Origin: Nereocystis luetkeana
Taxonomy: Eukaryota; Sar; Phaeophyceae; Laminariales; Laminariaceae
Direction of reading: 5' to 3'
DNA: 64,000 nt
NCBI GenBank assembly: GCA_031213475.1
Contig: JARUPZ010000036.1
Span: 310,001-374,000 of the forward strand
Below are positions 8,652 to 45,708 of the stretch, one piece after another. The notes under the pieces were generated by a model. That model worked only from the letters and a program-made list of their open reading frames with translations, did no database searches and had not been told where the DNA came from. A program made the position numbers and the translations under genes. The first letter of the stretch is position 1. Each line of letters begins with the position of its first letter.

Positions 8652-8667
8652 TACCAGGTACCAGGTA
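8652..8667. repeat. double TA micro-insertion TACCAGGTACCAGGTA
   Basis: Sister LINE-1 copies read CGTATGC here (38536-38541). This copy reads CG, then TACCAGGTACCAGGTA, then TGC: two successive CCAGG+TA insertions at one TA. Confidence 0.75.
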
Positions 8668-8712
8668 TGCAATAAGCACAGCAGTGAACAATGCGATGCC
8701 ATGCCATCATAC

Positions 8713-8722
8713 TACAGCAGTA
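8713..8722. repeat. TA micro-insertion TACAGCAGTA
   Basis: Sister copies read CATACTAGATACGAC; this copy reads CATACTACAGCAGTAGATATGAC. That is an exact 8-bp addition, CAGCAG plus a duplicated TA. Confidence 0.75.
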
Positions 8723-8960
8723 GATATGACAGGAAGGATATACACATTCTATGAAAGAGAAAAAACGAAAGAACACGAAGAACAGACGAAAAAAAAAGAA
8801 AACACGTCTAAAGAGAAAAATAAAAAAGATCGGAAAAAACTGCCGTGCCCCCCGGCGCAGGGGATGTGGCAGACACATGAAAAGAACGAGCTTTCAATAC
8901 ATAAAAAACACCACTACAGCTAGCAATACTTATAAACAGAGTAAAAAATACTAAGCTCAG

Positions 8961-9621
8961 GTGGCCAACTCTCTGGCTGACCGGATTTCGCTGACCCGAG
9001 ATATCGCTTTGTATTCTTTGGCTTTCTATTCGATGCGTAGGGGTTACGATCTTTCCTTTATCATGGGTTCGCACGTCTTGAGGCTCCCTGCGTCTAAGGG
9101 TTTGATATTCAACTTTCAGTTTGGCAAGACGCTGCGGGCCTCTAGTGAGGCGGTGGTAGTGTTAGCGGACCGGGACTGCCCGGCGATTTGCGCCTTTCGG
9201 GCGGTTACGGCGTACATCGCGGCCGCACAGCGGTTTGGGTGGGGCTTAAGCACTGGGCACCTCTTCCCCGTTGCGACGGCAGAAGGTGGCCGGGGCCGTC
9301 TCTCTCTATCCGCGGCCCGTATGACGGCGAACTTGCAGAGCTATCTGCGAATGGCAGATCTGCCGGACCACTTCACGATGCACTCCTTTCGAGTGGGAGG
9401 TTCACTCAAGCAAATCCCTCGCAGGGACGGCTGTGGACGAGATCATGAAAATTGGTGGCTGGAAGACAGAGTCAGTTGCGAAGTACTACATAGGGGCTAC
9501 CTCGAGCGGACAAGTGCGGGGTAGCAAGAAGAAACGGGGCCAGAGCTATGCGGACGCTAGCGAGCTACCGTTGTCGCCCGAGTTCAGAAAGGACTTTGCG
9601 GCGTTTGCGGGTAAGGACTGA
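8961..9621 (+). pseudogene. tyrosine recombinase catalytic domain, frameshifted
   Basis: The first reading frame (8961 to about 9410) contains YSMRRG, a plausible first catalytic Arg, and HSFRVGG, matching the family box H-x-x-R. A second frame (9433-9621) contains GGWKTESVAKYY, matching the C-terminal box with the nucleophilic Tyr, and ends SPEFRKDFAAFAGKD. One extra A in CTCAAGC near 9408-9411, compared with CTGAGC in the 15.3-kb copy, separates the two frames. The N-terminal part is missing, because LINE-1 DNA abuts at 8955. Tyrosine recombinases of this kind drive Crypton and DIRS/Ngaro-type elements and some integrating viruses; I cannot decide which. The locus is inactive as it stands. 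Confidence 0.85.
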
Positions 9622-9730
9622 GTTCAGGTGATATAAGTTTTGGTGAGACAGTTCTGCTCCGGACCAGCGATCAACAAAACAAAGGCAATCTGAAAGGAGG
9701 CGTAACGAAGTATGGGCGGGACCACAGGCC

Positions 9731-9800
9731 GGCGCAGGAGGCCTCATCCACTCCAATACTTACATCAAATGATCCACGGTAGAGAGCCAGAATACTACAG
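9731..9800 (+). repeat. 70-bp direct repeat, first copy
   Basis: Starts GGCGCAGGAGGCCTCATCCA and ends AATACTACAG, about 110 bp after the recombinase stop. It pairs with 10098-10167, with about five differences, and a related segment follows the second recombinase (15625-15688). Confidence 0.85.
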
Positions 9801-10097
9801 TGAAATGGAGATCCAATCCATGGACTCATATTTGGCACAAATAATGGAACCATTGATTATATCGAAATGTCTCGGAATTTGTATCGAAGCGAGGTCACTT
9901 CTTCCTTTCGCTCCCGAAACCTCGGAAGTAGAGTTGGTCGCGCCATTTCTTGAGACAATCCCACCCCCCCGGCAGTAGGGTGAGTATTCTTGGGCTTGTA
10001 TACCCAGTTCATTTACAGGTACTAACCCCGCGCAGAGTTTTGTGATAACGCCACTTTACTCAGCGCGGGGGGAAATACCGGACGAGACCTCCTGCCC
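9801..10097. other. spacer between the 70-bp repeats
   Basis: No convincing coding content. A possible non-coding part of the recombinase element. Confidence 0.4.
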
Positions 10098-10167
10098 GGC
10101 GCAGGAGGCCTCATCCAATCCAATATTTACATTAAATGATCCACGGTAGAGAGCCAAAATACTACAG
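10098..10167 (+). repeat. 70-bp direct repeat, second copy
   Basis: Same length and order as 9731-9800. It ends ACTACAG exactly where an antisense LINE-1 copy begins. Confidence 0.85.
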
Positions 10168-12290
10168 AAAAAGACAGGCAAACCGAAGCTCAAAGCACCC
10201 TCCAGGTAGCCGCAGCAGTTTGTGGTCTCGGTCCTGCGTTCGTCAACTATGCCCCGCCCCTTGGCGTCAGACAATACGGAACAAGCAAAGCAGGCTCGTC
10301 ATCCACCCACGCCACACGACTCCTTTCTTAAGGCATATCAATAAAAGAAAGGAAGAGAAAGCAATTAATGAAAACCACACAGGATCAAAGGCACAAAAAA
10401 AAAGACAAGGGAAGACCACGTTCGAATCAGCTGCACCAGTTGGCGGCGCGAGTAGCATAGGCATGTTACTTCCCAGTCGGCCTGGTGCCTTGCTACCCTG
10501 TCTGCCATCTCCTTCCTACTTTCGTCCTCCGCGGTTTCCCTTCTACTCCTCCTGTTTCCCCCCCTCCCCGCATTCCCTCGGTCGGGTTTCCTTCCACTCC
10601 TGCTGTTGCCTCCCCTCCCCCCACTCCCTTGGACACCACCCACGGCGGGTGCGCGGCGCTGTCTATTCAGCTGTGCCTCACCCTCGTGCCACCGCACCAT
10701 GAACCGTTCGGCTGCTTCAAGGATCCCCGGTACTGCTTCCCCGCCTTTTTGGCTGCAGCGGACCACAGTGCGGTCTCAACTCCGAACACCAAGGGGGAAA
10801 AGTTCCGCTGACGCTATGGTGGTGAGGTCTTCGACTATGCATCTATGCCGAGTCTTAGACTGCCCGCCACGTCTCGGGTTCTCCCCACCAGCTATCGTCC
10901 CGAACATTCCCCGACTGGGTAGTCGCTCCTTGCTTTGCCGTGCCACGGCCCCCGAAAAAAAGAGCCACCGTTTACGGATGGTCGTTTCGATGCTCTCGCA
11001 ACGTGTCATCTTGAGGGCCTTCGCGTACGAGAGGGTGGCGTGGTCAGTACGAAGTCGGCGCTGGAAGCCAATGACTCGCAAAAGAACTTGGTGGTGAGCC
11101 GTTCGAAGGTTGGCAAAGTGTTCCGCTCTGAGGGTCCACGTCACACACCCGTACAGCAGGGTCTCAATCACCTCGGCTTCAGCATTCGGATTTTCAGGCT
11201 AAGGGGGGCGGTCGTCCTATCATACAACTCCGGGCCGAACCGTTCGAGGCAATGCCCGCATGAGACGGATCCGTCGGTCGATTGCGAGCGAGAGGTCAGC
11301 GTTTTCGTGGGTAATGCCGCTTAGGTACAATATCTGCCGTATGTTTATACCTTTGGCCTGCTGCTTCGATGACAAGCGGAGGTGCAAGGATTGTCAGGTC
11401 TGGTGTTACTGCAGTAGAAACATCGTCTCTGTCTTATTTTCTGATACCGCGAGGCCTGCTGCTTCGAAGACAGTCACGATGGCTGCCATCGTTTTCGCGA
11501 GCCCTTCAGCCGACTTCGAGACAGTCCCTGCGTCATCGGCGTACAACATGCCCCATACAGCCCTTCGTACGCTTGCAAACGGCTCCTGCTCCTCTGTTCC
11601 GACTACTCCAGCGTCACCGAGTTGAACCAAATCCCTTACGATGGCTTCGTCTTGGCTGAAGCGTACTAGTACGACGTGTAACGCAGCAGCGAAGAATACG
11701 TTGAACAGTAACGGTGATAGCACGCAGCCTTGCCGCAGCCCCTGCGTGACATCAAACCATTCCGGGTACTCGCCGTCACCCGTACGCATGCGAGCCCGCA
11801 TACCTTGGTGGAAATTACAGATAATTGTCAGCATCTTGGTTGGTACGCCAAAGCGTGTGAGTACCTCCCATAGGAGCTTTCGGTCGACAGAGTCGTACGC
11901 TCTCTGCAGGTCGATAAAGCACACGTACAGGAAGATTTCTCTCTGTTGTCCGAGTTCTTGCAACCGGCGCACGACGAACAACATATCAATCGTTGATCGT
12001 GCGGGGCGGAAGCCGCAATGTTTCTCCGGGAGTAATCCCTCGGTCTCGCAGTAGTTTCTGGGGCAGGACGCGACGATTTTCTACAAAACTTTGCCCGGGT
12101 GGGCAACAAGCGAAACCCCTCTGTAGTAGTTGTAATCATTTCGGTCCTTTTTGTGAAGGGCCTTGATGATCGCATCTTTCCATTGCTGGGGGACTTCTCC
12201 TGATACCCAAACATTGACAAGGATCTTGAAAAAGCGATGGGCAAATGCGGGGTGGTCGGTTTTTAGGAATTCGGCCGGGAGACCATCTTA
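10168..12290 (-). pseudogene. LINE-1 copy B, 5'-truncated, broken ORF
   Basis: Minus strand. From 12290 down, it covers the RT domain (GFRPARSTIDMLFVVRRLQ, then FIDLQRAYDSVDR, GLRQGCVLSPLLFN and the catalytic MLYADDAG), then the C-terminal domain (LLYGCVTWTLRAEHFANLR), and then the 3' UTR down to the promoter-distal A-rich segment. Compared with the intact ORF, frames change near 12080, 11400 and 10770 and stops are present. The endonuclease domain and RT fingers upstream of 12290 are absent, and the (CA)n end is missing at 10168. Typical decayed 5'-truncated LINE. Confidence 0.88.
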
Positions 12291-12296
12291 GGGTTA

Positions 12297-12345
12297 AGTG
12301 CTGGATGTCGACGGGTAGAAATAACGGTTGATGTGGGAACACACA
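12297..12345 (+). mobile_element. LINE-1 3' terminus, sense
   Basis: Contains GTGCTGGATGTCGACGGGTAGA, a diverged GGTTGATGTGGGAAC and a short CA tail. It abuts the 5' end of copy B head to head. Confidence 0.65.
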
Positions 12346-12420
12346 CAGGTTCGCTCAAAGACATAACTTAGGCCGGTAGAACAAAGCGTGATACACACGT
12401 TCGCTCAAAGACGGATGACA

Positions 12421-12529
12421 TATTACGGGGAACCATAGTTAATAGGACCAAATATTGTTAGTAAGAATGGTTAAATATATAGGTTTTTATGTATACCATA
12501 GGTCCTATTAACTATGGTCCCCCGTAATA
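12421..12529. mobile_element. MITE-1, complete (109 bp)
   Basis: TATTACGGGGAACCATAG at the left and CTATGGTCCCCCGTAATA at the right. Perfect family ends with flanking TA on both sides. Confidence 0.88.
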
Positions 12530-12725
12530 GAACAAACTGTGACTTCAGACAGGATCCTCATGACGTGGCGCCAAGGGCGGCTTACAAGCGCCAAGACTTT
12601 AGTTACGCGGGAGACCCACGCCTGCTTCGCGGTTCATGACGTGGTTTCGCAGGCGAGTTTGCAAATGCCAAGAGCTAAATGGCGCAGGACAAAGCAGGCC
12701 GGGCTCCAGACGTTTTCATTTCAGT

Positions 12726-13120
12726 GAAGGAGGGGCTATCTCGCTCAGTTTTTACTGCTTCTCGATTCTGCCTGGAGTTCTGAAGATCAATTTCTTGGCC
12801 TTTTTTTGGCTCTTGAAAAAAAAAGGACTTTAAATTAGTTTGTTTTCTTGTCTTGGATCAAGTCTCAGCTGAGCTGATCGCGGAGTAATGATCGAAAAAA
12901 CGAAAACAAAAAAAATGAAAAAAAAAAACATCCTGAATTCAGTCCGGGAAGGGCTATCTCGCTCAGTTTTCACTGTTTTTCGATTCTAACCAGAGTACTG
13001 ACGATCCCGTTCTTGACTTTTTCTCGAAAAAACATAACTTGAACTTAGTGTGGGATTTTTTTTCTTGGATTTAGAGTCAGCTGAGCTGAGCTGTGTGTGA
13101 TTTTCGAAAAAAAAAAAACG
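12726..13120. repeat. diverged tandem duplication, unit about 220 bp
   Basis: GGGCTATCTCGCTCAGTTTT, GATTCT, TCAGCTGAGCTGA and an A-rich GATTTTCGAAAAAA-like end occur in the same order in two consecutive units (about 12730 and 12950). Function unknown. Confidence 0.7.
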
Positions 13121-13309
13121 AACAGAAAGGAAAGAAGAGGAAGAAAGATGAAAGAAAGGGACGAGTGTTCCGGCAAGAAATCGAAGAAGGACGCCCGAAA
13201 GGTTCTCCGAGAGGCGGAGTTCGGCAAGAGTGTTCCGGGTGGGAGCTCTGAGAGCGCAGCTAGGCCTTTCAATCAAGTGTGGCCAGGACAAGTCACTTGC
13301 GGAGGTTGA

Positions 13310-14190
13310 TGTAACTAGAATATTATTGCGAGCTGATTCCAGGAAAAAAGATGAAAACCTACCTCGGAGCAATAAAAAGCGGAATACCTGATGCGTTGAG
13401 TTTTCCTATACTAAAGATATCCACATGACCGCAGCATGAACAAGGGGAACATATGGGCGAAGAGGTTTATGGCGTACGAGCTGTAGTTCGCGCGTTATGG
13501 GCATTGTTTGTATGACTTGGGGAGGTGATATCTAATAGGGATTTTAGCTTTATACGGTAAAATCATTTCTATTCGTATTCGGGCAATATATCGGTGACTA
13601 CGGCGGATAATTCGACACTAGACTTGTTGACGTGATGTTGACGCGATTGCGTCAACAAAGGGAAGACGTCCATGTCGGTTTTTTTTCTGCGAGCCGTACA
13701 ATGCTGTTGTAACAAAAACATGTCGAAGTGCTAGAGCAATAAATTAAGTTCTTTGGAAACCCTTAAGGGAGAAACATACTCTTCACGGAATCATTTGTTC
13801 ACCTTGGTTTTTGAGAGTTGGAAAGCAAACTTTCACAGGGTCGTGCTTCATAACAATTGCAAAACAAACCACGACTGGGCTTTTTACTAAATACTTATTT
13901 CGTTCATCTTGGGACGGTCAAAGTCGCCGAAAAATCCAGAAAAAAATGGTAAAATGTATACTCAATCCGGGTCAATTTTGCCATATTGTGACCCCCACTC
14001 GTTCTCGCTCAATTTTCAGAGTTGTACGGAAGGCGAAACAAAGTTGGCAAGAACTGTTGAGAGGAACTTATCCGGTCGCTTTTTTTGTTTCAATTGACCA
14101 CTTTCGACCAAAAATGGCCCGAATTGGGGGGAGGGGGAAGACTCGACTTTTTGCTTGTGTTTTCTTCCCCGTATAAGTATACGTGGCCAA
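13310..14190. other. unassigned DNA
   Basis: The 121-codon ORF at 13811-14176 has no recognisable domain. No repeat family assigned. Confidence 0.35.
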
Positions 14191-14195
14191 TTTTG

Positions 14196-15029
14196 GACCA
14201 AAATCAGTGACATCTCATGCTAAGAACAAGTACCAGGTACAAATCACAGCTATTGGCCAGACTGACATCGTACCTGATTTTGGCTCGAAAAGGCCAGGAT
14301 GTACCTGATTTTGTCCACTCGGTCTATTAATAACTTTCAACTGATTTGAATTTTTTTTCAACCAATCAGAAAGGCCATACCTACACTCCATATCTTTTCT
14401 CTGCGTATGCGTCTGCGGTCCCTCGGTTCCACTTCTTGTCTACGTATTAACTCTGTACTCGTACGTACGTATTTGTACATAAATACGTACGCCCATTCGT
14501 ATACTTTTTTTCTTTGGGTATGACAGATATGACTGATGATGTGATGTGTACTCTGTTGTTTTCTCCTGGCCACAGAAGTCGAGTCAAATTACAGCACTGC
14601 TGTGTGGACAAACACAGCAGTTCGTCTGCCCCACCCCGTGTCGATGGGGTCTCAGGTTTGGTATGGCAACATAATTTCATGCCGACCAGGCGGTTCCGCG
14701 AGAGCGGTCGAGATGGTTCAAAGCTGGCAACGGCAATGGGGGGGGGAAGGGCGCCAGAATAAATACTCTTGGCGCTCCCGCCGTGGCGAAACACACGAAG
14801 TCTACTAATAGTGACCCTCCGCAGGTCCAAGTGGAGCCCGTGGTACCTACCGGTATACCCTGAAAAACCCCCCAACAAATCAGATTTAGGAGGCCACACG
14901 TTTGATGTTTAGGCGCTTTACAAAAAACGGATTTTCATGGACTAGACGCCGCTCGTGGCGCGCGCTTTTACTTGATTTTACTATGTACCTGCTTTTGACC
15001 CAAATGGATCAGGTAAAGCTGATTTTGGC
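14196..15029 (+). mobile_element. R1 element copy b, both ends present
   Basis: Begins GACCAAAATCAG and ends CTGATTTTGGCC, so the termini are inverted repeats (consensus GCCAAAATCAGGTATACC). The internal marker strings are shared with copies a, c and d/e. No ORF is conserved among copies, so it is a non-autonomous DNA transposon by inference. Confidence 0.75.
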
Positions 15030-15064
15030 CACAGCCCTTAATATAATAATAAAATACAGTTGTA

Positions 15065-15139
15065 AAAAGCGGATTGGGTGGCGGGACTTACCCACCGGGC
15101 ACCTCTTCACCGTTGCTACGGCAGAGAACGTGGCTGGGG

Positions 15140-15198
<59 letters not shown>

Positions 15199-15536
15199 CA
15201 GCCCGTATGACGGTGATCCTGCAAAGCTATCTGCGGATGGCAGACCTGCCGAACCACTTCACGATGCACTCGTTTCGAGTGGGACGCTCGCTGAGCAAAT
15301 CCCATGCCGGGATGGCTGTGGGCGAGACAAATGAAACTTGGTGGCTGGAAGACAGAGTCAGTTGCGAAGCACTACGTACATACATCGGGGCTGCCTCTAG
15401 TGGACAAGGGCGGGGCAGCACAGAAAGAAGAAACGTGGCCAGAGTTACGCGGACGCTATATAGTAGCGAGCTACCACTGTCGCCAGAGTTCAGAAAATAG
15501 TTTGCGGCGTGTGCAGTGTGCAGGAAAGGGTTGAAC
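15065..15536 (+). pseudogene. tyrosine recombinase fragment with TC-expanded frameshift
   Basis: Homologous to 9235-9621. TGHLFTVATAE lies before the TC run and AARMTVILQSYLRMADLP plus HSFRVGRS after it. The two halves are in different frames; both read (SL)n through the dinucleotide run, so the repeat length sets the frameshift. The Tyr box is also damaged: WKTESVAK is split and the expected KYY reads as CVHT/RTYIG depending on frame. It is 5'-truncated near 15065. Confidence 0.8.
15142..15196 (+). repeat. (TC)n microsatellite inside recombinase remnant
   Basis: About 27 TC units replace the short TCTCTCTCT present at the same place (9300-9308) in the other copy. Confidence 0.9.
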
Positions 15537-15624
15537 TAGGTTGGGTGAGATAGCTTTGCCCCGGACCAGTGATCAACTAAAAATGCAATCTAAAAGGCGC
15601 ACCGAAATATGGGCGGGACCACAG

Positions 15625-15688
15625 GCCGGCGCAGGGGGGAAGCCTCATCCAATCAAATACTTGATCGACGGCAGAGAGACAGTACAGG
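15625..15688 (+). repeat. recombinase-element 3' segment
   Basis: GGCCGGCGCAGG, CCTCATCCAATC and GGCAGAGAGAC correspond to the 70-bp repeat at 9731-9800. The segment lies at a similar distance downstream of the recombinase remnant. Confidence 0.65.
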
Positions 15689-15870
15689 TACAAGTAATAT
15701 TTATATAACGGTCACATGATACGTACCGGTATACAAAGATCATGCATCTGATATACCAGTAACGTTACTCAAGTACGCCGTGTATGCCACAATATATACC
15801 AGATACTGCATACCTGGTACTTCACTGTTCCTCTCGATACCTCCTACTGCTACTGCTGATGTACGAGTTT

Positions 15871-15960
15871 GTACACATACGAGATGGGACAATGGGAACA
15901 GAGGGTGGCACGTGGTGTACGATTGTACACATACGAGATGGGACAATGGGAACAGAGGGT
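15871..15960 (+). repeat. 36-bp direct repeat, two copies
   Basis: GTACACATACGAGATGGGAC through AACAGAGGGT occurs identically at 15871-15906 and 15925-15960 with an 18-bp spacer that itself contains GTACGATT. Confidence 0.9.
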
Positions 15961-16123
15961 CGCATCGAATTGTGCCTACCCACGCTGCAAGGCGCTCTCA
16001 ACAATTGAATCCTTTATATATATTTTTTTGCAAATAAAGTCAAAGCCCGACCCACCTGGGGCTCGAACCCAGGACTCAAACAAGTAGAATTCGAGGTTAA
16101 CCACTTTAACCACCGGGGCGACC
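15961..16123 (-). mobile_element. SINE A, 3'-truncated copy
   Basis: Antisense head and proximal body (B box complement GGCTCGAACCC). It stops at CGCATCGAATTG, lacks the distal body and tail, and joins directly to the 36-bp repeat. Confidence 0.85.
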
Positions 16124-16406: not shown

Positions 16407-16469
16407 TGTGGCGTAGCTTTGTGACCACAGAACTTGGATCTCTTCCAGGATTGAAGAATCGGCACGGAC

Positions 16470-16501
<32 letters not shown>

Positions 16502-16882: not shown

Positions 16883-16990
16883 GTAGCCCAACCAGTGTCC
16901 GTGCCGATTCTTCGATCCCATCAAAAGAGTTACAAGTTCTGTGGTCACAAAACTGCTTCAAGCCCGCTTTCCTTACGTATATATGTACAT

Positions 16991-18341: not shown

Positions 18342-18471
18342 TATTATGGAGGACCATATGAAATACCAGGTAGGATCTACGGTAGGCACAAAAACCTACC
18401 AGGTACCAAGTATATATTTCGCTATTTATACTAACAATTCATGGTCCGATTTACTATGGTCTCCCGTAATA
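18342..18471. mobile_element. MITE-1 with two micro-insertions
   Basis: TATTATGGAGGACCATA ... ACTATGGTCTCCCGTAATA. Extra TACCAGGTA motifs at 18364-18372 and 18397-18405 are absent from most family members and make this copy longer (130 bp against 109). Confidence 0.85.
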
Positions 18472-18493: not shown

Positions 18494-18501
18494 TATTAAT
18501 A
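18494..18501. repeat. TA micro-insertion TATTAATA
   Basis: The right arm of the long inverted repeat reads CACTATTAATAGGGTCAACG; the left arm complement reads CACAAGGGTCAACG. Removing TTAATA restores the alignment. Confidence 0.65.
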
Positions 18502-19354: not shown

Positions 19355-19643
19355 CGTGCTCACATTATTAATATTAATAGTTCCCTCTCCTGAAATCTTG
19401 CCTGTGGTGATAAGAACAGGCTGTAAAACAAAAACATATACATACACAACGCACGGCAGCTTCAGCGTGTGTATGGTCTTGACATTCAATCGCCTTTTCT
19501 GCCCAGCTTCATCAGTACTCCAAGTGTCTGTCCCAATCCCTTACCCTAGAGAAATACGAAGAGGTACTACAGCAGTAATTCTGTCGGCACAGACTGTGAG
19601 ATAGAGTTAGACCAAAAACAAAAATAATCGCGGATGCATGGGT

Positions 19644-20753: not shown

Positions 20754-20883
20754 TATTACGGGAGGGCATACCAGGTATTAAATAGGATCTACGGCAGACA
20801 CAAAAACCTACGAGTGTATTTACCTATTTTTACTATTAATAACAACATTTATTAGGTCCTATTTACTATGGTCCCCCGTAATA
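20754..20883. mobile_element. MITE-1 with micro-insertion
   Basis: TATTACGGGAGGGCATA at the left and CTATGGTCCCCCGTAATA at the right. TACCAGGTA at 20769-20777 lies inside the left TIR. Confidence 0.87.
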
Positions 20884-20905: not shown

Positions 20906-21102
20906 TATTACGGGGGACCATAGTTAATAGGACCTATGGCATACATAAAAACCTAAATATTTAACCAATTTTACTAAAAATATTTGGTCCTCTTAACTAT
21001 AGTAACTATAGTTAATAGGACCTATGGCATACATAAAAACCTAGATATTTAACCAATTTTACTAACAATATTTGGTCCTGTTAACTATGGTCCCCTGTAA
21101 TA
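20906..21102. mobile_element. MITE-1 tandem dimer
   Basis: Two near-identical units (GTTAATAGGACCTATGGCA at about 20924 and 21009) are fused at CTATAGTAACTATAG without the two inner GGGGG ends. Outer ends are TATTACGGGGGACC and GGTCCCCTGTAATA. Confidence 0.87.
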
Positions 21103-22011: not shown

Positions 22012-22120
22012 TATTACGGGGGACCATAGTTAACAGGACCTATGGTACAGATAAAAACCTATATGTTTAACCATTTTTACTCACAATATTTGGTCCTGTT
22101 AACTATGGCCCCCCGTAATA
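22012..22120. mobile_element. MITE-1, complete
   Basis: TATTACGGGGGACCATAG ... CTATGGCCCCCCGTAATA, 109 bp, perfect flanking TA. Confidence 0.9.
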
Positions 22121-23677: not shown

Positions 23678-23810
23678 GTACGGGGGACCATAGTAAATAC
23701 CATGGTACCTGGTAGCAGTAGGACCTACGGGACACACAAAAACCGTTCTATGAATCCATTTTTACCTTCTGCTGATAATATTTGGTCCTATTTACTATGG
23801 TCCCCCGTAC
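23678..23810. mobile_element. MITE-1 with micro-insertion, GTAC ends
   Basis: GTACGGGGGACCATAG ... CTATGGTCCCCCGTAC. The outermost TA has become GTAC. TACCTGGTA at 23706-23714 is embedded near the left TIR. Confidence 0.87.
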
Positions 23811-24184
23811 TACGCACCAGGTATGGTACAGCAGTACAGCAGTCCTTCGCGAGGTCAGAAGGAGAAACAAACCACAGACAGCCACTACTGCTGTAGTACT
23901 GTAGTACCAGGTACCTGGTATACTCGTATTTTGTCATGTGACATGATGAGATTTCTGGACGAATAACAAAGTCGACATTTTCTTTTCAAGAACAACTGCT
24001 GTGTGTATTACATATTTTTAGAATTCCCCGTCCCCCCCCTGTCTGGGGCTAAAATATACGAGTATAGTGTGGCGTGTTGTTTGTTCTTCGAATACCCTTG
24101 GTTAATGTATTTGGAATGTACGTTCGAAAGTATGCCCCGCCTGCCATCTGCCACCTGCCAGTTTTTTCAAGGCTTATCACGGTA

Positions 24185-27300: not shown

Positions 27301-27865
27301 AGATGCAGCAGGAACGAGAAAAACAAAATCTTTGCAGCTGAAAATACATTTTTTTTTCTTGATCCAATCACTTACCTGGTACCAGGTATGTAGTTTTTCG
27401 GCTGTTGGACCGGCCATATCTCTCGAGCAAAAAAAAAGTTCCGGCAGGCGATCAATGTGTCGACTATTAATACTGCATGGCCGTGTCGGAAACTCACGTC
27501 CAATTACATAGTATACGTACCATACGTAAAATTGAGTGGGGCACGACCGATCTGCCGTTTATGCAACGTCTTGGCTGGCCAAGCTCGCATTCGTTCAATG
27601 TACATTCACAAAGTAGTACCTGGTAGTATACCAGGGTATACCGCAATAATGCTACTGCTGTGAGCAAACGTGAAAAGACGATCAGGAGTGTTCGCGTTTT
27701 TCGCATTTTTGTTCAAGTAGTAGGGGGCGTTTACTGGGATGGTGTCCGTTTTAGCCGAACTGGCGCGTTAACTCCGGGGGGGGCCTTTTTTACAATTTAA
27801 TAGCATCGTTACGGTACTCGTTCGAGAGTCTGGATGACGGTGCTTTTAACCCTCTTTGTGCTGCA
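27301..27865. other. unassigned DNA
   Basis: No supported gene or repeat family. Contains TACCTGGTACCAGGTA near 27372. Confidence 0.35.
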
Positions 27866-34486: not shown

Positions 34487-34490
34487 TTAA

Positions 34491-34512
34491 CCCTAACCCT
34501 AACCCTAACCCT
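34491..34512 (+). repeat. interstitial telomere-like (CCCTAA) run
   Basis: About four CCCTAA units preceded by GTTAA and followed directly by the TTAACTC end of a MITE-2. It is the complement of TTAGGG. Confidence 0.75.
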
Positions 34513-34608
34513 TAACTCTTTTATGACGGCAGTCCCGTTTTAGGGACAAGTTACTTCGAATTTCAGTGGTCTGTCCCCAAAACGGGGCTGCGGTTCTAAA
34601 AGGGTTAA
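34512..34608. mobile_element. MITE-2 (TTAA target)
   Basis: TTAACTCTTTTATGACGGCA at the left and GCGGTTCTAAAAGGGTTAA at the right. TTAA at both ends and CCCTTT-type termini fit piggyBac-like non-autonomous elements (inference). Confidence 0.8.
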
Positions 34609-37002: not shown

Positions 37003-37010
37003 TATTAATA
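37003..37010. repeat. TA micro-insertion TATTAATA
   Basis: This copy reads CCCTACTATTAATAGTCGGCC where other LINE-1 copies read CCCTGCTAATCCGCC (38979-38993, 54032-54046). TTAATA is extra. Confidence 0.6.
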
Positions 37011-38400
37011 GTCGGCCTGCTACCTTGTTACCCTGTCGGCTGTCTATTTTCTGCTTTCGTCAACCGCGGTTTCCTTACGACTGTTGCCCCTCTTGTTTCC
37101 ATTCCCTAGGGCACCACCCACAACGGATGCATGGCGCAGTCTGCTCAGCTCCGCCTCATTATTTTTCCACCTGACCATGAACCGTTCGGCTGCTTCGAGG
37201 ACCCCGGTACCACTTACCCGCCTTCTTTGCTGCGACGGTCCACACTTTGGTCTCTATTCCAAACACCAACGGAGTATGTACCGTCGACCCCTCGTTGGCT
37301 CGAACCACCTCGAGAGATCTTCAACAAGGCATCTTTGCAACATCTTCGGCTGTCTGCCCGGTCTCTGGCCCTCCCCACCGGTCATCGTTGCGATCACCCG
37401 ACTGGGTAATCGCACCTTGTGTTGCCGCACCACGGCCCCTGTAAAGAAGAGCCTCCGTTTACCGAAATCGTTTCGATGCTCTCGCATAGTGTATTCTTGA
37501 GGGCCTTCGCGTACGAGAGAGTCGTATAGTCGCCACGCTGTCGGCGCTGGAAGCCAATGTGATGCAGGAAGACTTGATGGTACACCGATCGGAGCCTGGC
37601 GAAGTGTTTCGCACTGAAAGTCCACGTCACACATCCGTACAGCAGGGTCTTCCAGTAGTCACCCCGGTCTTCAACAAGCGGACTTTCAGACTAGGCGGGG
37701 CCGTCTTCAGATCGTACAGCTCCGGGTCGAACCACTTAAGGCATGCCCACATGAGCCGCATGCATGCGTCGTTCGATTTCGAGCGAGAAGTCAGCGTCTT
37801 CGTGGATAATGCAGCCGAGGTTGAGGTCTATATCTCTGGCCAGCTGCTTCGCTCGCGAGGGGTAAAGCAGGGGATGGCTGGTCCTGTGTTCGTAGGAGAA
37901 TCGTTTCCGTCTACGTTTCCGAAACCGTAAGACCTGCTAAATCGAAGAAAGTCACGATGACTGTCACTGCTGTCATGCTTTGAGCAAGTCCCTCCGCTCA
38001 CTGCGAGACAATTCCTGCGTCATTGGCGTACAGCATGCACCACTCTGCCCTTCGAACGCATGTCAACGGCACTTTTCCGACCATCACATCCGCCTCGAGG
38101 GAAACCTAATACCTTACCATGTCTTCGTCCTCGCTGAAGCGTACTAGAACAACGTACAGCAGCAGCAAAGAACGTGCTGAACAGCAGCGGCGACGGCACG
38201 CAGCCTTGTCGTAGCCCCTGCGTGACATCAGATGATTCTGGGTGCTCGCCATCATGTGTACACACGCAAGCCCGCATACGGTCATGGAACTGGCGAGTGA
38301 TTGCATCTTGGCTGGCACGCCAAAGCGTAAAGCGCACCTACCTGCCAGAGCAGGTCTCGGTCGACAGAGTCGTACGCTTTCTGCAGGTCCATGAAGCGCA

Positions 38401-41400
38401 TCTGTGTGTGTGTTCTTCCGTTCTTTCTACCCGTCGACATCCAGCCCAACCAGTGTCCGTGCCGATTCTCCAATCCTAGAAGAGATACAAGTTATGTGGT
38501 CACAAAGCTACGCCACAAAGACACTACGTTGCCACGTATGCAGTAAGCACTGCAGTGGGCAATGCAATGCCATGCCATCATACTAGATACGACAGACACG
38601 ACATACACAATCTACGAAATAGGGAAACGAAAGGAAACAATCAAAGAGAAAACAAAAACGAAGCAGACGAATCGAAAGAGAAAAAAAAAAAAAAAAAATG
38701 AAAGCAAAAACTAGGAGAAACAATCTGTCGTGCCCCCCCCCCCCGCAGGCGAGGTGGCCAACACTTGAAAAAGAACGAGCTGGAAAAAAGAAAAAAAGAA
38801 CAAAAACACCACTGCTTGTAAACAGAGTAAGACAAAGAACCAAGGAAAAAAAATATAATAACAAAACGAATAACAAAAAAAAATAACAAAGGGGAAATAA
38901 CAGGCAGACCAAAGCCCAAAGCACCCTCCAGGTGGCGGCAGCAGTTTGTGGTACGAGTAGTATTATAGCCAGGTTCTCCCTGCTAATCCGCCTGGTACCT
39001 TGCTACCCAGACTGCCGTTTCCGCCCTGCGTTCGTCAACTATGCCCAGCCCCTTGGCGTCAGACAATACGAAACGAGCAGAGCAGGTTCGTCATCCAACC
39101 ACGCCACACGGCTCCTTCAGTACGGCTTATCAATCAGAACAGGAAGAGAAAAAAATAAAATGAAAATCACGGGGAGTCAGGGCAAGAAAGAAAAAAATAA
39201 AACAAAAATAGAAGACAAGGGAAGACCACGTTCGAACCAGCTGCACCTGTTGGTGCCACTAGTAGTATGGTCATGTTTTACTTCCTAGTCGGTCTGGTGC
39301 CTTGCTACCCTGTCTGCCATCTCCTTCCTACTTTCGTCTACCGCAGTTTCCCTTCTACCCCTCCTGTTCCCCCACCTCTCCGCATTCCCTTGGTCGGGCT
39401 TTCTGCCACTTCTCCTGTTGCCCCCTCCACCCCCATTCCCTTGGACACCATCCACGGCGGATGCGCGGCGCTGCCTACTCATCTCAGCCTCAGCCTCGTG
39501 CCACCTCACCGTGAACCGTTCAGCTGCTTCAAGGATCCCCCGGTACCACTTCCCCGCCTTTTTGGCTGCAGTGGACCACAACGCGGTCTCAACTCCAAAC
39601 ACCAAGGGGGCAACTTCCGTTGACCCTTCGGTGGCTCGGAACTCCCTAAGGTCTTCGACTATGCATCTCTGCCAAGTCTTACACTGTCCGCCTGGTCTCG
39701 GGGTCTCCCCACCAGCTATCGTCCCGAACATTACCCGACTGGGTAATCGCTCCTAGCTTTGCCGTGCCACGCCCCCGCAAAGAAGAGCCGCCGTTTACGA
39801 ATGGTCGTTTCGATGCTCTCGCAACGTGTCATCTTGAGGGCCTTCGCGTACGAGAGGGTGGCATGGTCAGTACGAAGTCGGCGCTGGAAGCCAATGACTC
39901 GCAACAGGACTTGGCGGTGAGCCGTTCGAAGGTTGGCAAAGTGTTCCGCTCTGAGGGTCCACGTCACACACCCGTACAGCAGGGTCTCGATCACCTCGGC
40001 CTTCAGCATTCGGACTTTAAGGCTAAGGGGGGCGGTCGTCCTATCATACAACTCCGGGCCGAACCGTTTGAGGCATGCTCGCATGAGGCGGATCCGTCGG
40101 TCGATTTCGAGCGAGAGGGCAGCGTCTTCGTGGATAACGCCGCCTAGGTATAAGAACTGGGTAGTCTGCTTATACCTCTGGCCTGCCGCTTCGATGACGA
40201 GCGGTGGTGCGAGGGTTGTCTGGTCTGGTGTTTGTAGGACCATTGTCTCTGTCTTCTTTTCCGACACCGTGAGGCCTGCTGCTTCGAAGACAGCCACGAT
40301 GGCTGTCATCATTTTCGCGATCTGCAAAGGGATGTCTCTCTAGTCCGACTTCTTATAATCGTCGCACGTCAGCATGTCGACCGTTGATCGTGCCGGATGA
40401 AAGCCGCACCGCTCTTCGGGGATGTCCCGATCTTCGCAGTGTTTGATTTGCTCATTTCGCCCAAGGATGGTTCGTCTCCAAGCAATAGTTCAAGCGGCCG
40501 TGGTGGCAATGGGTCGATGACAGTGGGATCGAGAGTCAGCGATTTCGCGTTCAAGAGTTTGTGGAAAACCTTCACCCATCGTCAACGAATTCGCACTTTA
40601 TCCCGTAGCAACGTGCCGCCCTCGTCCCTTACCCTCCTCGTCCCTGATACCGGTAAACTGCGCACTCCTCGCTTGTCTCCCTTCCAGCCCTCTATCGTAG
40701 TCTTCAGGTGCTTGTAGAGCCCTCGTTGGTCATCATCGACTAGAAGCCTCTCGGTTTCGGAGAGGTACTCTTCAAAGTACGCCTGTACTCCTGCAGCAAT
40801 TACCTCCTGCAGATTCGCACACGCGGTTCTCAAATATTTCCAAGCTAATCTATCCCGGGGGCGGGCGCGCAAAGAGTTGTCACGCATCTTCACTTGCGGT
40901 CCCATGCTATGGTCAAAGCAGCCAGGATTTCAGCACACTCGCACCATCGGCCTTGTCGGCGTGGTGGCGGAGGTTCTTCAGCTTCTACCGCAACGATGAT
41001 GGTTGCGGTGGGTAGGCCAACCATGCCAGCAGTGTTACGGGGCTGGAAAGGATGGCTGAGAGTCGCAACGGCCCTCGCGACTATTCGCTCGTGACACTTT
41101 CCGTCGGACGTAAAACACCTGCCTGTCAATTGGTCACCTTTTTGGCGTCTTGTGCGCTTGTCGGTATTATGCAAAGTGACCAGAGAGGCGAACCGTCATG
41201 CATACAATGTTGTGGTCTGCGTCAGCCTTCGCTGGAGATGGATGCTGAGGGGCGGTACTCTATTATAGGCCGATGAGCTTGGAGCTTGTCGGGTTAGGAT
41301 GTAGGATGTAGTCAATCCGCTTACGGCCAGTCGGGCCTGTGCCGTTGTGCGTATGCGATACTCCACCATCGTGTGTGCTGAAAAGTGTTGGTGAGACCTA

Positions 41401-42517
41401 ATTTGCAATTATTGGCAAACAACAGAGGTCGTATGCCATTATCGTTGATCATATCGCGCCCGCATGCTCCCAGTACTATATTTTCATCATCACTTCACCC
41501 TATCAGTCTCTGATCAGTGTGTGCATTATTAATAGCATCCATCAGTATAAAAAAGCACTCTTTCGTTAGGATCTGTTCTACAAAGTCCTCCAGCTTTTAC
41601 CAGGAAATACGTTTCAGCTCGGCGTCCTTCATACACTCTGTTGGAGCGTACGCAACGACGAAACTAACTGCCACGTATTTACCAGCCAACTCGAAGCGCA
41701 TCGACATAAGCCGTTCGTCAACGAATTCGTGCGTGTACGAAGCTTTACAGCATGTAGACTCCTTGACTGCCAAACCTACCCTGTACAGTCCCGGCCTGGC
41801 TTCATTTTTCTCCTGACCTGACCAGAAAACTTGATGCCCCGCGGCGCGGAACATCCTCCTGCCAGCTCCTCGAGTTTCCTACAGGCCGATCAAGTCACAG
41901 CCAAGTTGTCGGACCTTCGCCAGTACGCGCTCGTCATGCCCATACGCGTTCTTCCCCTTAACAGCCAGGGTGCGCACATTGTAGGTCGCTACCGCCACAA
42001 GTACCTCCTTCTGCCTCTTACGAGCCTTGCGTGCTACTATAGCTTTGTCGCCAGCCGATGAGAAGCTCGTCCCCTCCTCTACTTTTGTTTTTGGCGTTTT
42101 TTTTTTTCTCTCTTGCGAATTTGGGTACTCTCTGTTTTGCGGCTCGGTACGCGCCTTGGTTTCCATTCATCGGGTGCAGCCGTCCGAGCCAACGCCGACA
42201 CTCCGTCCTTCCTCTCGCGCATGCGTACCCATGCGGTGGTCAACCTCTCCCCTCCCCAGGCTGCGCACGTAGCGCTCTCTGCTGTGGTAATGTTTCCGCA
42301 CCGCTCTTGTGGGGACGAACTCCTTGGCGTTGGAGTTGAACATAAAAAGAAATCACCACCACCCCCCGCACCGTCCTTAAAGTGACACGCCCACCAGCCA
42401 GACCGCGCAGGGTTCCCTCGCTACCCAGCCCGAGGTCTGAGGCCCGTGTGGGTGCCGCTAGGCCGCTGCAGGCGGTCCTGGCAGACTTCGTCGGCGCGAA
42501 GGGACCATTCCTAACTA
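38401..42517 (-). pseudogene. LINE-1 copy D, near full length with internal deletions
   Basis: Minus strand. The (CA)n end lies at 38401 and a 5' UTR-like GACGAAGTCTGCCAGGACC at about 42490. Recognisable parts are the APE start (TYNVRTLAVKGKN), MRFELAGKYVAVSFVVAYAP, MLYADD-proximal C-terminal RT and YLGGVIHEDAALSLEIDRR. Two deletions are visible. One joins DEPSLGEMSK to sequence near EDRDIPEERCGF and the other joins GFHPARSTVDML to the AKMMT segment, so the RT core is lost. The rest is close to the intact copy. Confidence 0.88.
41527..41534. repeat. TA micro-insertion TATTAATA in the LINE-1 ORF
   Basis: Copy D reads GCATTATTAATAGCATCC where the intact ORF complement has GCGTTGGCATCC (about 49828-49845). 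The 6-bp TTAATA addition is in the codons for the conserved MDAN segment. Confidence 0.65.
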
Positions 42518-42893
42518 GTGGTTGACTGGGTGGATGGGATTGATTCACGGTTCACGGTTACAGCTAGAGTTTAGTGTCAGTTCTCATTCGTCTTATGCAA
42601 AGCGACCCTCAACGATTTTCTCGAATGAGCGGTAAGGGCTACTCCCTTCCCCTCACTAGTCTGGATTTTTCTCTCGCAACGGTTAGTTCCTCTCGTTCAG
42701 CATCTCCTCCGCTTCGTGCGCTTCTCACTAGTTATGAATAGTTTCCGCCTCAATTCATGTATAGTGTTGTTTTCGTGACCTTGTTCCCACTCTGCGTTGT
42801 GCATTGTGCTTTCTTCTCGTTTCCTGTTCTCCGTTGGGGTAGGGTCGCGATGATAGCAATGGTAGCGATGATAGCGATGCCGACACCGCTTCG
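42518..42893. other. unassigned DNA between LINE copies
   Basis: No ORF or known family. Contains a (GCGATGATA)n-like patch at about 42846-42880. Confidence 0.35.
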
Positions 42894-43937
42894 CGTGTGT
42901 TCTTCGCATCAAACCGTTATTTCTACCCGTCGACATCCAGCACAACCAGTGTCCGTGCCGATTCTCCATTCCTATTACAGAGATATACAAGTTATGTGGT
43001 CACAAAACCGCGCCACAGATACTACACACCTGGTACATTGTTATGCCGTGAGCAGAGTAGGCAATGCAATGTCATGCTCAGATGAGTAGGCAGCGCCGCG
43101 CATCCGCCGAAGGTGGTGTCCAAGGGAATGGGGGGGGGGGGGGGGGGGGGGGAGGCAACAGGAGGAGTGGCAGAAAACCCGACCAAGGGAACGCGGAGCG
43201 AGGGGGGGACAGGAGGAGTAGAAGGGAAACTGCGGTGGACGAAAGTAGGAAGAAGATGGCAGACAGGGTGGCAAGGCACCAGGCCGACTAGGAAGTAGAA
43301 CATGACTATACCACTCGTGCCACCAACTGGTGCAGCTGGTTCGAACGTGGTCTTCCTTTGTCTTCTCTTCCTTTTTTTTTCTCCTTTCTTGCGATGATTC
43401 TCTGTGATTTTCATTTTGTTTCTTTCTCTTCCTTTTTCCGATTGATAAGCCGTATTGAAGGAGTCGTGTGGCGTGGGTGGATGACGAGCCTGCTTTGCTT
43501 GTTTCGTATTGTCTGACGCCAAGGGGCTGGGCATAGTTGACGAACGCAGGGCGGAGACGGCAGTCTGGGTAGCAAGGTACCAGGCGGACCACCAGAGAGA
43601 ACTTGGCTATGCTACTCGTACCACAAACTGCTGCCGCTACCTGGAGGGTGCTTTGTGCTTTGGTTTGCCTGTTATTTTCCCTTTGTTTTTTCCCTTGGTT
43701 CTTTGTCTTACTCTGATTACAAGTAGTGGTGTTTTTCTTTTTTTCTTTTTTTCCCAGCTTACTATTTTCAAGTGTTTGCCACATCGCCTGCGGGGGGGGG
43801 GCATGACAGTTTGTTTCTTCTATTTTTTCTCTTTTTCTTTTTTTCTTTTTCTCTTTCGATTTGTCTTCTTTGTTTTTTTTAATTTCCTTTCGTTTCTCTA
43901 TTTCATAGAATGTGTATGCCGTGTCTGTCGTATCAAG

Positions 43938-43946
43938 TACCTGGTA
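43938..43946. repeat. TA micro-insertion TACCTGGTA
   Basis: GTCGTATCAAGTACCTGGTATGATGAC here; GTCGTATCTAGTATGATGAC at 53459-53478 and 62032-62050. An exact CCTGG+TA insertion at TA. Confidence 0.8.
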
Positions 43947-43988
43947 TGATGACATGGCATTGCATTGCCCACTGCTGTGCTTACTGCA

Positions 43989-43997
43989 TACCAGGTA
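43989..43997. repeat. TA micro-insertion TACCAGGTA
   Basis: CTGCATACCAGGTACGCGGC here. The complement of 38531-38542 reads CTGCATACGTGGC, so CCAGG plus TA is extra. The same insertion is present at 45700-45708. Confidence 0.8.
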
Positions 43998-44850
43998 CGC
44001 GGCAACGTAGTATATCTGTGACGTAGCTTTGTGACCACATATGTGACCTCATAACGTGTACCTGGTTCGTACCTGGTATCTCTTCCAGGATTGAAGAATC
44101 GGCACAGACACTGGTTGTGCTGGATGTCGACGGGTAGACAGAACACACATACATGTCATCATACTGGGTACGACAGGCACGACATACACTTTTGATGAAA
44201 AAGAGATAACAAACAAAACAAACGGACCGAGAAAACAAAATAAATAATAACAGAAAACAAAGAAACAAATCGAAAGAGCGAAAGGAAAAACAAGGTGACA
44301 GACCGCGTGGCAATGCAACGTTTCCCATCCACTTGCATTCGGAACGCCTGTCGGCTTCTGCTTCGAGTCCTATTTTGGTATGTCTAGTTTTCTCTTGGGT
44401 TTGAGCCAAAATCAGGTATACCTGGCCACTTTTCGGCCAATATCAGTTACATTCTAAAAACAAGTACTGGTACGAAACATACCCCAGGAGCCCTGCTATT
44501 ATTGGCCAGGCTTACATCGCAACTGATTTTGGCTTGTAAAGGCCAAGCCAAGGTACCCTGGTATGTTCGCTGACTTTTTATACTCTGTCTAGCATTCAAC
44601 TGATTTTGGCCAGCTTTGAACCAACCAGAGAGGCCATACGTACCTGTGTACTGCTGTTTTTTCTCTCCGTATGCGTCTGCCCTCCCCCCCTCGGTTGAAA
44701 TTCTTCCATATTTTGACGTATTAACTCTGTACTCGTACGTCGTACGTAAACGCACGTATTTATACATGCAAACATGACCATAGAACTTGTATCTCTTACC
44801 GTAGTTAGTTGTTATGGTGTGTGCTCTGTTATCTTCTACCAGGTTTGTTT

Positions 44851-45523
44851 CTCCTAGATTTTGCTTTCATTTTTCTTCTTTTTCTCTTTCGATTTGTCTA
44901 CCTTGTTTTTGTTTTCTCTTTGATTGTTTCTTTTCGTTTCACTATTTCGTAGATTGCGTATGTCGTGCCTGTCGTTTTTTTTTTTTTTTTTTTTTTTTTT
45001 CATCCCATTTATTATCTTCGCACATCTTCTTCTCTCTCTCCTTCCAACTCGTAACTCAGATCCGGGGTCGCATAGCAGGCTCTTCTACCCCCTTCCCGCT
45101 ACGGTACGTGCCTTCATTTTTATCGCGAGAAGATTTCAGCCTTTTCTTCACTCGTCGACTGGCATCGAATTGTGCCTACCCACGCTGCAAGGCGCTCTCA
45201 ACAATTGAATCCTTTTTTATTTTTGCAAATAAAGTCAAAGTCCGACCCACCTGGGGCTCGAACCCAGGACTCAAACAAGTAGAATTCGAGGTTAACCACT
45301 TGGACCACCGGGGCGACCGGTCATCGTATCTAGTATGATGACATGGCTTTGCATTGCCCACTGCAGTGCACACTGCACACGTGGCAACGTAGTATCTCTG
45401 TGGCGTAGCTTTGTGACCACAGAACTTGTATCTCTTCTAGGATTGAAGAATCGGCACGGACACTGGTTGTGCTGGATGTCGACGGGTAGAAAGAACGGTT
45501 TAATGTGAAGAACACACACACAC
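44851..45523 (+). mobile_element. sense LINE-1 3' UTR, interrupted by a SINE
   Basis: TTTGTTTCTCCTAGATTTTG ... GTCGTGCCTGTCG, then after the SINE TCATCGTATCTAGTATGATG ... GAACACACACACACC. 5'-truncated in the UTR. Confidence 0.8.
44975..45318 (-). mobile_element. SINE A, full length
   Basis: Poly(T) of about 26, body complement with two private changes (GGGGTCGCATAGC, TCGACTGGCATCG), and the head. Confidence 0.93.
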
Positions 45524-45646
45524 CAGGTATTCACTTTCGATTTGTCTACATTATTAGCAGAGCACCTGTACTGTTTTTGTTTTCTCTGTGATTGTTTCTT
45601 TTCGTTTCTCTATTTCATAGATTGTGTAAGTCGTGTCTGTCGTATC

Positions 45647-45654
45647 TATTAATA
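45647..45654. repeat. TA micro-insertion TATTAATA
   Basis: An exact TTAA plus TA addition at the same CTAGTATGATG that carries CCTGG+TA in the 43.9-kb copy. Confidence 0.8.
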
Positions 45655-45699
45655 GTATGATGACATGGCATTGCATTGCCCACTGCAGTGCTTACTGCA

Positions 45700-45708
45700 T
45701 ACCAGGTA
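45700..45708. repeat. TA micro-insertion TACCAGGTA
   Basis: CTGCATACCAGGTACGTGGC; shared position with 43989-43997. Confidence 0.8.

What the first reader, a model, noticed from the sequence alone, without database searches (positions are those of the whole stretch)
8652..45708. TA-flanked micro-insertions (TACCAGGTA, TATTAATA, TACAGCAGTA) interrupt repeat copies at exact positions
Seen directly: compared with sister copies, several LINE-1 and MITE-1 copies differ by an exact extra 6-8 bp that duplicates a TA around a fixed core. Clean cases are CCWGG+TA (43938-43946, 43989-43997, 45700-45708, 8652-8667 as two in a row, 20769-20777, 18364-18372, 18397-18405, 23706-23714), TTAA+TA (45647-45654, 41527-41534, 18494-18501, 37003-37010) and CAGCAG+TA (8713-8722). 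The CTAGTATGATG site carries TTAA+TA in one copy and CCTGG+TA in another. By eye, ACCAGGT/ACCTGGT occurs some 35-45 times in the window, far more than the few expected by chance. Inference: these are excision footprints (or minimal insertions) of several TA-targeting transposon families. The double and opposite-orientation forms (TACCAGGTACCTGGTA near 23906) would be repeat visits to one TA.
Basis: partly seen in the sequence, partly recalled or inferred. Interest (0 to 1): 0.85.

Follow-up and report, generated by a model that had tools for sequence, protein, structure and literature searches.

The report
Mass transposon excision scars at TA
The genome, apparently of a brown alga, carries a very large number of tiny TA-flanked inserts that look like the scars left when cut-and-paste transposons leave; one kind matches an abundant mobile element still present, while the element behind the commonest kind was not found in the small part read.

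Summary
All 13 listed sites are present as written. In the 465 Mb source genome (a brown alga by protein evidence) TACCWGGTA occurs at 182,395 places against 1,744 for the reversed pattern, TACCSGGTA at 10,882 against 1,899, TATTAATA at 93,112 against 10,689. Between repeat copies, TA is the duplicated dinucleotide in 21 of 103 short insertions; the next, AC, in 9.

Best reading: excision footprints of at least two TA-targeting cut-and-paste families. TATTAATA is the footprint of MITE-1, whose intact ends read TA-[TTACGGGGG...CCCCCGTAA]-TA; its sites share MITE-1's flank preference (p = 8e-13), CCWGG sites do not (p = 0.96). CCWGG sites prefer a second TA 7 bp away (41 of 164 flanks against 7.6%), which would help explain period-7 doubles in both orientations. 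CCWGG, CCGG and CCATGG fit alternative joins of CCA...TGG ends. No such element was found in 221.5 kb (0.05% of the genome), and no transposase was tied to either family. The kind is known (Tc1/mariner-Stowaway footprints); the scale and the unseen source element are unusual.

The parts
43938..43946 (.). TACCTGGTA footprint in a repeat copy (second TA of GTATC-TA-G-TA-TGATG)
   Evidence: one sister with bare TA; sequence
43989..43997 (.). TACCAGGTA footprint
45700..45708 (.). TACCAGGTA at the same place as 43989 in another repeat copy
8652..8667 (.). double footprint TACCAGGTACCAGGTA
8713..8722 (.). TACAGCAGTA footprint; sisters show bare TA or TATTAATA
45647..45654 (.). TATTAATA footprint; sisters show bare TA or TACTGCTGTA
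14325..14332 (.). TATTAATA footprint; sisters show bare TA
263..270 (.). TACCGGTA inside a MITE-1 copy, at an internal TA that holds TA, CCGG or CCWGG in other copies
18397..18412 (.). TACCAGGTACCAAGTA at the same internal MITE-1 TA
18364..18372 (.). TACCAGGTA in a MITE-1 copy
   Evidence: no alignable sister across it
20769..20777 (.). TACCAGGTA in a MITE-1 copy
   Evidence: no alignable sister across it
23698..23720 (.). triple chain TA-CCATGG-TA-CCTGG-TA-GCAG-TA in a MITE-1 copy where a sister has a single TA
   Evidence: sister AGTAAATAGGACC (L010); comparison by eye
23905..23920 (.). opposite-orientation double TACCAGGTACCTGGTA
27373..27388 (.). opposite-orientation double TACCTGGTACCAGGTA
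19366..19379 (.). double TATTAATATTAATA
12421..12529 (.). MITE-1 copy with intact ends, TA-TTACGGGG...CCCCCGTAA-TA, 109 bp with both TAs (proposed source family of TATTAATA)
22012..22120 (.). MITE-1 copy with intact ends
23679..23809 (.). MITE-1 copy that hosts the triple chain; its ends read TA-CGGGGG, without the TTA

Best explanation
These are excision footprints of at least two families of TA-targeting, cut-and-paste DNA transposons that work like Tc1/mariner and Stowaway elements. A transposon inserts at TA and duplicates it. On leaving, a staggered cut leaves the outermost bases of its ends on both flanks; end joining fuses them, so TA becomes TA-core-TA. MITE-1 has ends TTA...TAA; two overlapping bases (TA over TA) give TTAA. 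The commonest scar, CCWGG, fits ends CCA...TGG joined with a single-base overlap: A faces A, and repair makes it A or T with equal chance. CCATGG (no overlap) and CCGG (last base lost) are other joins of the same ends. The CCWGG enzyme prefers TAs with another TA 7 bp away; each scar creates such a pair, so revisits make period-7 doubles. Shown: enrichment, TA duplication, MITE-1 ends, matching flanks, the second-TA preference. Inferred: the cut, the joins, the CCA...TGG ends, and that the CCWGG element is now rare or lost.
For: Genome-wide: TACCWGGTA 182,395 vs control 1,744; TACCSGGTA 10,882 vs 1,899; TATTAATA 93,112 vs 10,689. TA is the top duplicated dinucleotide: 21 of 103 non-tandem insertions of 5-12 bp (next AC 9), and 12 of 24 with exactly 2 bp duplicated. 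Sisters with bare TA: 9 of 41 motif sites with sisters, 0 of 14 controls. 35 of 53 MITE-1 ends in 221.5 kb are preceded by TATTA; blast similarity between copies starts most often at that TA. Flanks of MITE-1 insertions (n=40: -3 T .53, -2 A .57, -1 C .57) match TATTAATA flanks (n=92: T .45, A .53, C .51). Scored with the MITE-1 flank model against ordinary TAs: TTAA p=8e-13; CCWGG p=0.96; control TATSATA p=0.24. TA at -7: 41 of 164 CCWGG flanks (doubles left out) vs 7.6%, p=2e-9 after dropping 5 degenerate ones. Doubles: 6 vs 0.55 expected in 200.1 kb, 3 same and 3 opposite orientation; 8 more among the first places listed (C1:5236-276408), 5 same and 3 opposite, counted by eye. Central base 44 A: 45 T. 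Mechanism of the class: 3-nt 3' overhangs, end joining (PMC7827188, passages); TIR fragments kept inside the TA duplication and re-use of one TA (PMC1925063, passages).
Against: No element with CCA...TGG (or CCWGG) ends appeared in the searches of 164 kb and 221.5 kb, although 89 CCWGG scars lie in the latter. The plain 3-nt scar TACCATA is not enriched once MITE-1-internal copies are removed (18 seen, 19 expected for all), while TACCGTA (2.6x) and TACCCTA (6x) are in excess and unexplained. CCATGG evidence is two sites. Only 2 of 9 CCWGG sites with a sister have a bare-TA sister. TACCSGGTA is itself 5.7 times its control. 18 of 53 MITE-1 ends lack the full TATTA. CAGCAG/CTGCTG (10 and 7, with CAGCTG 0 and CTGCAG 1) and CTCG do not follow from 3-nt overhangs. 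CWG sites also lean to MITE-1 flanks (p=2e-5), so that score is not unique to TTAA. No DDE_3 transposase was found in the genome; DDE_1 gave 28 matches, and the 3 distinct loci read showed no convincing terminal inverted repeats. MITE-1 could not be placed in a superfamily.
Confidence: 0.8

Rival explanations
1. The units are inserted as such: a TA-specific process adds 5-8 bp (for example abortive integration of short end fragments, or a templated addition at a cut TA), with no full transposon ever at the site.
For: No source element for CCWGG in the sample although it is the commonest unit; units are very uniform.
Against: TTAA units match MITE-1 ends and flanks, so at least one kind is explained by excision. 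CCWGG, CCGG and CCATGG occurring at the same or neighbouring TAs look like alternative joins of the same ends.
Confidence: 0.1
2. Tandem duplication or microsatellite-like slippage of a 7-bp unit.
For: Period-7 doubles exist.
Against: 6 of the 14 doubles counted are in opposite orientation, which slippage cannot make; most units are single; only 3 of 106 short insertions kept were tandem duplications.
Confidence: 0.02
3. The motif is an ancestral, functional word (for example a protein-binding or methylation site; CCWGG is a known methyltransferase site) kept by selection in repeats and elsewhere.
For: Strong enrichment and palindromic symmetry; some repeat copies share the motif at the same place (43989 and 45700; also 25034, 26507, 27080 and L015:2945, whose only sisters carry the same motif).
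Against: Some sister copies lack exactly the motif minus TA; chains at one TA; several unrelated cores share the same TA-duplicating layout. The methylase reading is recalled, not tested.
Confidence: 0.04
4. All cores come from one family of elements with variable end joining rather than several families.
For: All cores share the TA layout.
Against: Flank preferences of TTAA and CCWGG differ, and the end bases differ.
Confidence: 0.04

Closest known systems
Tc1/mariner excision footprints (Sleeping Beauty, ZB)
   Same: TA target and TA duplication; staggered cut leaving the outermost bases of the ends; end joining; W at the centre of TACWGTA-type scars (recalled for Sleeping Beauty). 3-nt overhangs: PMC7827188 passages; 0-3 bp scars for ZB, 2-4 bp for the class: PMC7913693 passages.
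   Different: The commonest core here is 5 bp; scars number in the hundred thousands; source transposase not identified.
Stowaway MITEs of grasses
   Same: Short elements with TA duplication; scars made of 1-4 bp end fragments inside the TA pair; repeated use of one TA (PMC1925063 passages; PMC4561436 passages).
   Different: There the scars were inferred at single gene introns; MITE-1 has different ends (TTACGGGGG...), and the host is apparently a brown alga.
Passer (pogo-type) transposons
   Same: Cut-and-paste group with 0-4 bp scars described as like Tc1/mariner (PMC9976928 passages); DDE_1 transposase genes exist in this genome. That DDE_1 marks pogo-type enzymes is recalled.
   Different: No DDE_1 gene here has been tied to MITE-1 or to CCA...TGG ends.
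piggyBac
   Same: A TTAA word is involved.
   Different: piggyBac integrates at TTAA and its excision leaves no scar (PMC7351741, abstract start in the listing); that it duplicates TTAA is recalled. Here TA is duplicated and TTAA is the scar.
TA-bounded eliminated sequences of ciliates (recalled)
   Same: TA boundaries; many thousand excisions.
   Different: Those leave a single TA (recalled); here a core remains. Not tested.

Membership tests
Stowaway-like MITE / Tc1-mariner (for MITE-1) | TA target-site duplication | tested here: met
   35 of 53 ends preceded by TATTA; blast similarity between copies begins most often at TA-TTACGGGGG
Stowaway-like MITE / Tc1-mariner (for MITE-1) | terminal inverted repeats, short element | tested here: met
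   109 bp with both TAs at 12421-12529, TIR TTACGGGG(G/A)ACCATAGTTAA
Stowaway-like MITE / Tc1-mariner (for MITE-1) | scar = TA pair plus a few end bases | tested here: met
   TATTAATA with matching flank preference; excision itself not observed
Stowaway-like MITE / Tc1-mariner (for MITE-1) | mobilised by a DDE/D transposase of the superfamily sharing its ends | tested here: inconclusive
   DDE_3 none, DDE_1 28 matches, no convincing inverted ends at L023, L024, L025/L026; PF01359 did not complete
Tc1/mariner footprint (for CCWGG) | full-length element with matching ends in the genome | tested here: inconclusive
   none in 164 kb or 221.5 kb, 0.05% of the genome
Tc1/mariner footprint (for CCWGG) | TA duplicated around the scar, bare TA in unvisited copies | tested here: met
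   but bare-TA sister in only 2 of 9 CCWGG sites with a sister
Tc1/mariner footprint (for CCWGG) | scar length 2-4 bp | tested here: not met
   core is 5 bp; range from PMC7913693 passage
piggyBac | TTAA duplicated at both ends of the element (recalled) | tested here: not met
   MITE-1 copies have TA-TTA on the left and TAA-TA on the right
PIF/Harbinger-Tourist | direct 3-bp duplication TTA/TAA, usually precise excision | tested here: not met
   TTA and TAA are inverted, not direct, in MITE-1

The most novel reading that the evidence does not exclude
The CCWGG units record an extinct or nearly extinct transposon family that jumped some 180,000 times in this lineage and then vanished, so that a genome keeps a dense, base-precise record of a lost element; or, bolder, they come from regulated excision or from a TA-specific enzyme that adds 7-bp units without any full element.
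Probability: 0.3. Interest if true: 0.8.

Novelty: new variant of a known kind. Interest (0 to 1): 0.62.

Why it matters
Excision scars are usually studied one site at a time (my general knowledge). Here about 180,000 CCWGG and about 82,000 TTAA places in excess of the reversed control give a statistical record of joining rules and target choice in what looks like a brown-algal lineage. They allow inference of the ends and target taste of an element that is hard to find, and they suggest that a sizeable class of short indels in this genome has one cause. I found no paper describing this in eight paper searches, of which I saw listings and abstract starts, plus passages of five papers. Two of the searches returned nothing, none named the motif together with an alga, and subscription journals are mostly missing from the library.

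Tried and rejected
Searching for CCWGG source elements: inverted repeats bounded by TA within 3 kb in 164 kb, words that follow TACC, TACAG, TACTCG and the like (which counted overlapping loci twice), large gaps between repeat copies (mostly telomere and low-complexity noise, output cut), and blast boundaries at TA in 221.5 kb gave MITE-1 and a second MITE-like family (TAACCCCTTTAGAA...), and nothing repeated with CCA/CCW ends. Ten long reading frames from the other stretches gave no transposase in Pfam. DDE_1 loci L023, L024, L025, L026 had no convincing terminal inverted repeats; L025 and L026 are 100% identical over 3,601 bases and so probably redundant assembly. Rfam: no family at gathering score in the window. 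A MITE-1 20-mer was not in viral contigs. Rejected: slippage, a piggyBac target word, PIF/Harbinger.

Caveats: L001-L008 were fetched because they hold TACCWGGTA, so CCWGG densities in the 221.5 kb set (which keeps L002, L003, L004, L007, L008) are biased up; one search leaves all of them out. L001, L005, L006 were dropped for overlap, and the first 3,900 bases of L009 for telomere repeats; L009 was cut the same way. In one search, 43 of 149 events were dropped as low complexity, and some events are the same site in related copies. Flank counts use both flanks of each site, so they are not fully independent. One search crashed on an N and was rerun; one search failed on a blast option and was rerun.
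Full report
What was checked. All 13 quoted ranges contain exactly the quoted words, and the double near 23906 starts at 23905. ACCAGGT and ACCTGGT occur 23 times each. The window is C36:310001-374000 of a 465,085,209-base genome in 1,987 contigs. The host is a eukaryote with a LINE (49020-52760: RVT_1 and Exo_endo_phos). A protein at L019:4797-6548 carries the EsV-1-7 cysteine motif, and a calponin-homology protein at L018 has relatives that sources name Ectocarpus, Sphacelaria and Laminaria, besides oomycetes and others lower down; I infer a brown alga. That the EsV-1-7 motif is typical of brown algae is recalled.

How strong it is. TACCWGGTA: 182,395 places, reversed control 1,744. TACCSGGTA: 10,882, control 1,899, so the centre is A or T about 17 to 1. 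TATTAATA: 93,112, control 10,689. Because these patterns are their own reverse complements, forward and reverse counts are the same places. In 200.1 kb (window, L009 without its first 3,900 bases, L010-L022) there are CCWGG 75 sites (62x expectation), TTAA 42 (34x), CCGG 17 (10x), CTCG/CGAG 33 (7x), CWG 51 (3x), CAGCAG/CTGCTG 17. Density varies: L014 and L017 have no CCWGG in 10 kb, L013 has 8.

Are they insertions? In a test that does not look for the motifs, on 2,341 blast alignments between repeat copies, 149 insertions of 5-12 bp were found; 43 low-complexity ones were dropped, 106 kept, 3 of them tandem duplications. Of the remaining 103, 21 duplicate TA (next AC 9, AA 8), although TA is 5.2% of dinucleotides; of 24 with exactly a 2-bp duplication 12 are TA. 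By my reading of that list the 21 include CCWGG 5, TTAA 3, CCGG 3, CAGCAG 1 and CTGG 1; the other 8 have other or unclear cores. In the motif-first test, 9 of 41 motif sites with an alignable sister have a sister with a bare TA, and none of 14 control sites do. CTCG, CWG and TTA cores gave no bare-TA sister (0 of 16), so for them the insertion reading is open.

TTAA comes from MITE-1. Intact MITE-1 copies read TA-TTACGGGGGACCATAGTTAA...TTAACTATGGTCCCCCGTAA-TA, 109 bp with both TAs at 12421-12529. Of 53 ends matched in 221.5 kb, 38 are preceded by TTA and 35 by TATTA, and blast similarity between copies begins most often at that TA. Joining TTA and TAA with the shared TA overlapped gives TTAA; the 3-base forms TATTATA/TATAATA are also in excess (3.6x). 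The flank preference of MITE-1 insertions (T-A-C before the TA) is that of TATTAATA sites. Scored with a MITE-1 flank model against ordinary TAs: TTAA p = 8e-13, CWG 2e-5, CAGCAG 0.011, CTCG 0.15, control TATSATA 0.24, CCWGG 0.96, CCGG 0.97. With a stricter end pattern one search counts 50 MITE-1 ends, and 49 TATTAATA sites, in the same 221.5 kb.

CCWGG has another taste. TA stands 7 bp before the site in 41 of 164 flanks against 7.6% (p = 2e-9 after dropping 5 that look like decayed CCWGG; doubles excluded). A CCWGG scar makes two TAs 7 bp apart, so this can explain why adjacent doubles are in excess (6 against 0.55). The doubles are 3 same and 3 opposite orientation in that set, and 5 and 3 among the first places listed (C1:5236-276408, counted by eye).

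Chains and alternative joins. At 23698 a MITE-1 copy reads AAA-TA-CCATGG-TA-CCTGG-TA-GCAG-TA-GGACC where a sister in L010 reads AAATAGGACC: three visits to one TA, by eye. At one internal MITE-1 TA, copies hold TA, CCGG (window 263, L010:5630), CCAGG (L022:1943) or CCAGG-TA-CCAAG (window 18397). CCWGG, CCGG and CCATGG are the one-overlap, trimmed and blunt joins expected of CCA...TGG ends; CCT...AGG ends would give CCTAGG, seen 0 times against 2 for CCATGG, and TACCAGTA is 4.1x against 2.0x for TACCTGTA. This is thin: TACCATA, the plain 3-base scar, is not in excess outside MITE-1, and TACCGTA and TACCCTA are in excess without explanation. CAGCAG/CTGCTG (10 and 7) with almost no CAGCTG or CTGCAG (0 and 1) fits annealing of a near-palindromic overhang longer than 3 bases, resolved from one strand; this is inference.

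What is missing. No element with CC-type ends was seen in 164 kb or 221.5 kb, the latter about 0.05% of the genome, so a family of up to a few thousand copies could be missed. DDE_3 gave no match in the genome, DDE_1 28; the 3 distinct loci read have no convincing inverted ends. Most genome searches did not complete, so MITE-1 number, PF01359 transposases, doubles and CCATGG could not be counted genome-wide.

Known background. Sleeping Beauty and mariner enzymes leave 3-base 3' overhangs that end joining turns into scars (PMC7827188, passages); scars of 2-4 bp are quoted for the class (PMC7913693, passages) and 0-4 bp for Passer (PMC9976928, passages); grass Stowaway scars are end fragments inside the TA pair, with evidence for repeated use of one TA (PMC1925063, passages); in yeast, excision sites of a Stowaway-type element are repaired mainly by end joining (PMC4561436, passages). 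So the mechanism class is known. Unusual here are the numbers, the 5-bp rule, the second-TA preference and the absence of the source element from the sample.

Noticed in passing
window 49020-52760: Long LINE reading frame with endonuclease and reverse transcriptase domains; best database relatives 78-81% identical (unnamed), and one relative named Ectocarpus (59% over 15% of the query).
   Followed up: partly
window 54325-54955, 47960-48036, 34512-34608: A second palindromic MITE-like family with ends TAACCCCTTTAGAACCGCAGTCC, also in L010, L016 and L025.
   Followed up: no
L019:4797-6548 (-): Protein with six stretches of the EsV-1-7 cysteine-rich motif.
   Followed up: no
window 20920-21088: An 88-bp tandem duplication inside a MITE-1 copy.
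   Followed up: no
window 34488-34512: Short interstitial telomere-type repeat (TAACCC, 4.2 copies); the first 10 kb of contig C1 (L009) is rich in the same unit.
   Followed up: no
221.5 kb sample: TACTCCGAGTA/TACTCGGAGTA (7 and 3 sites) and TACTCGTA/TACGAGTA (24 and 12): further TA-bounded near-palindromic cores without a known source.
   Followed up: partly
L025 and L026: A stretch of C2 and a small contig (C1099) are 100% identical over 3,601 bases; three more small contigs give the same DDE_1 score, so some small contigs may be redundant.
   Followed up: no
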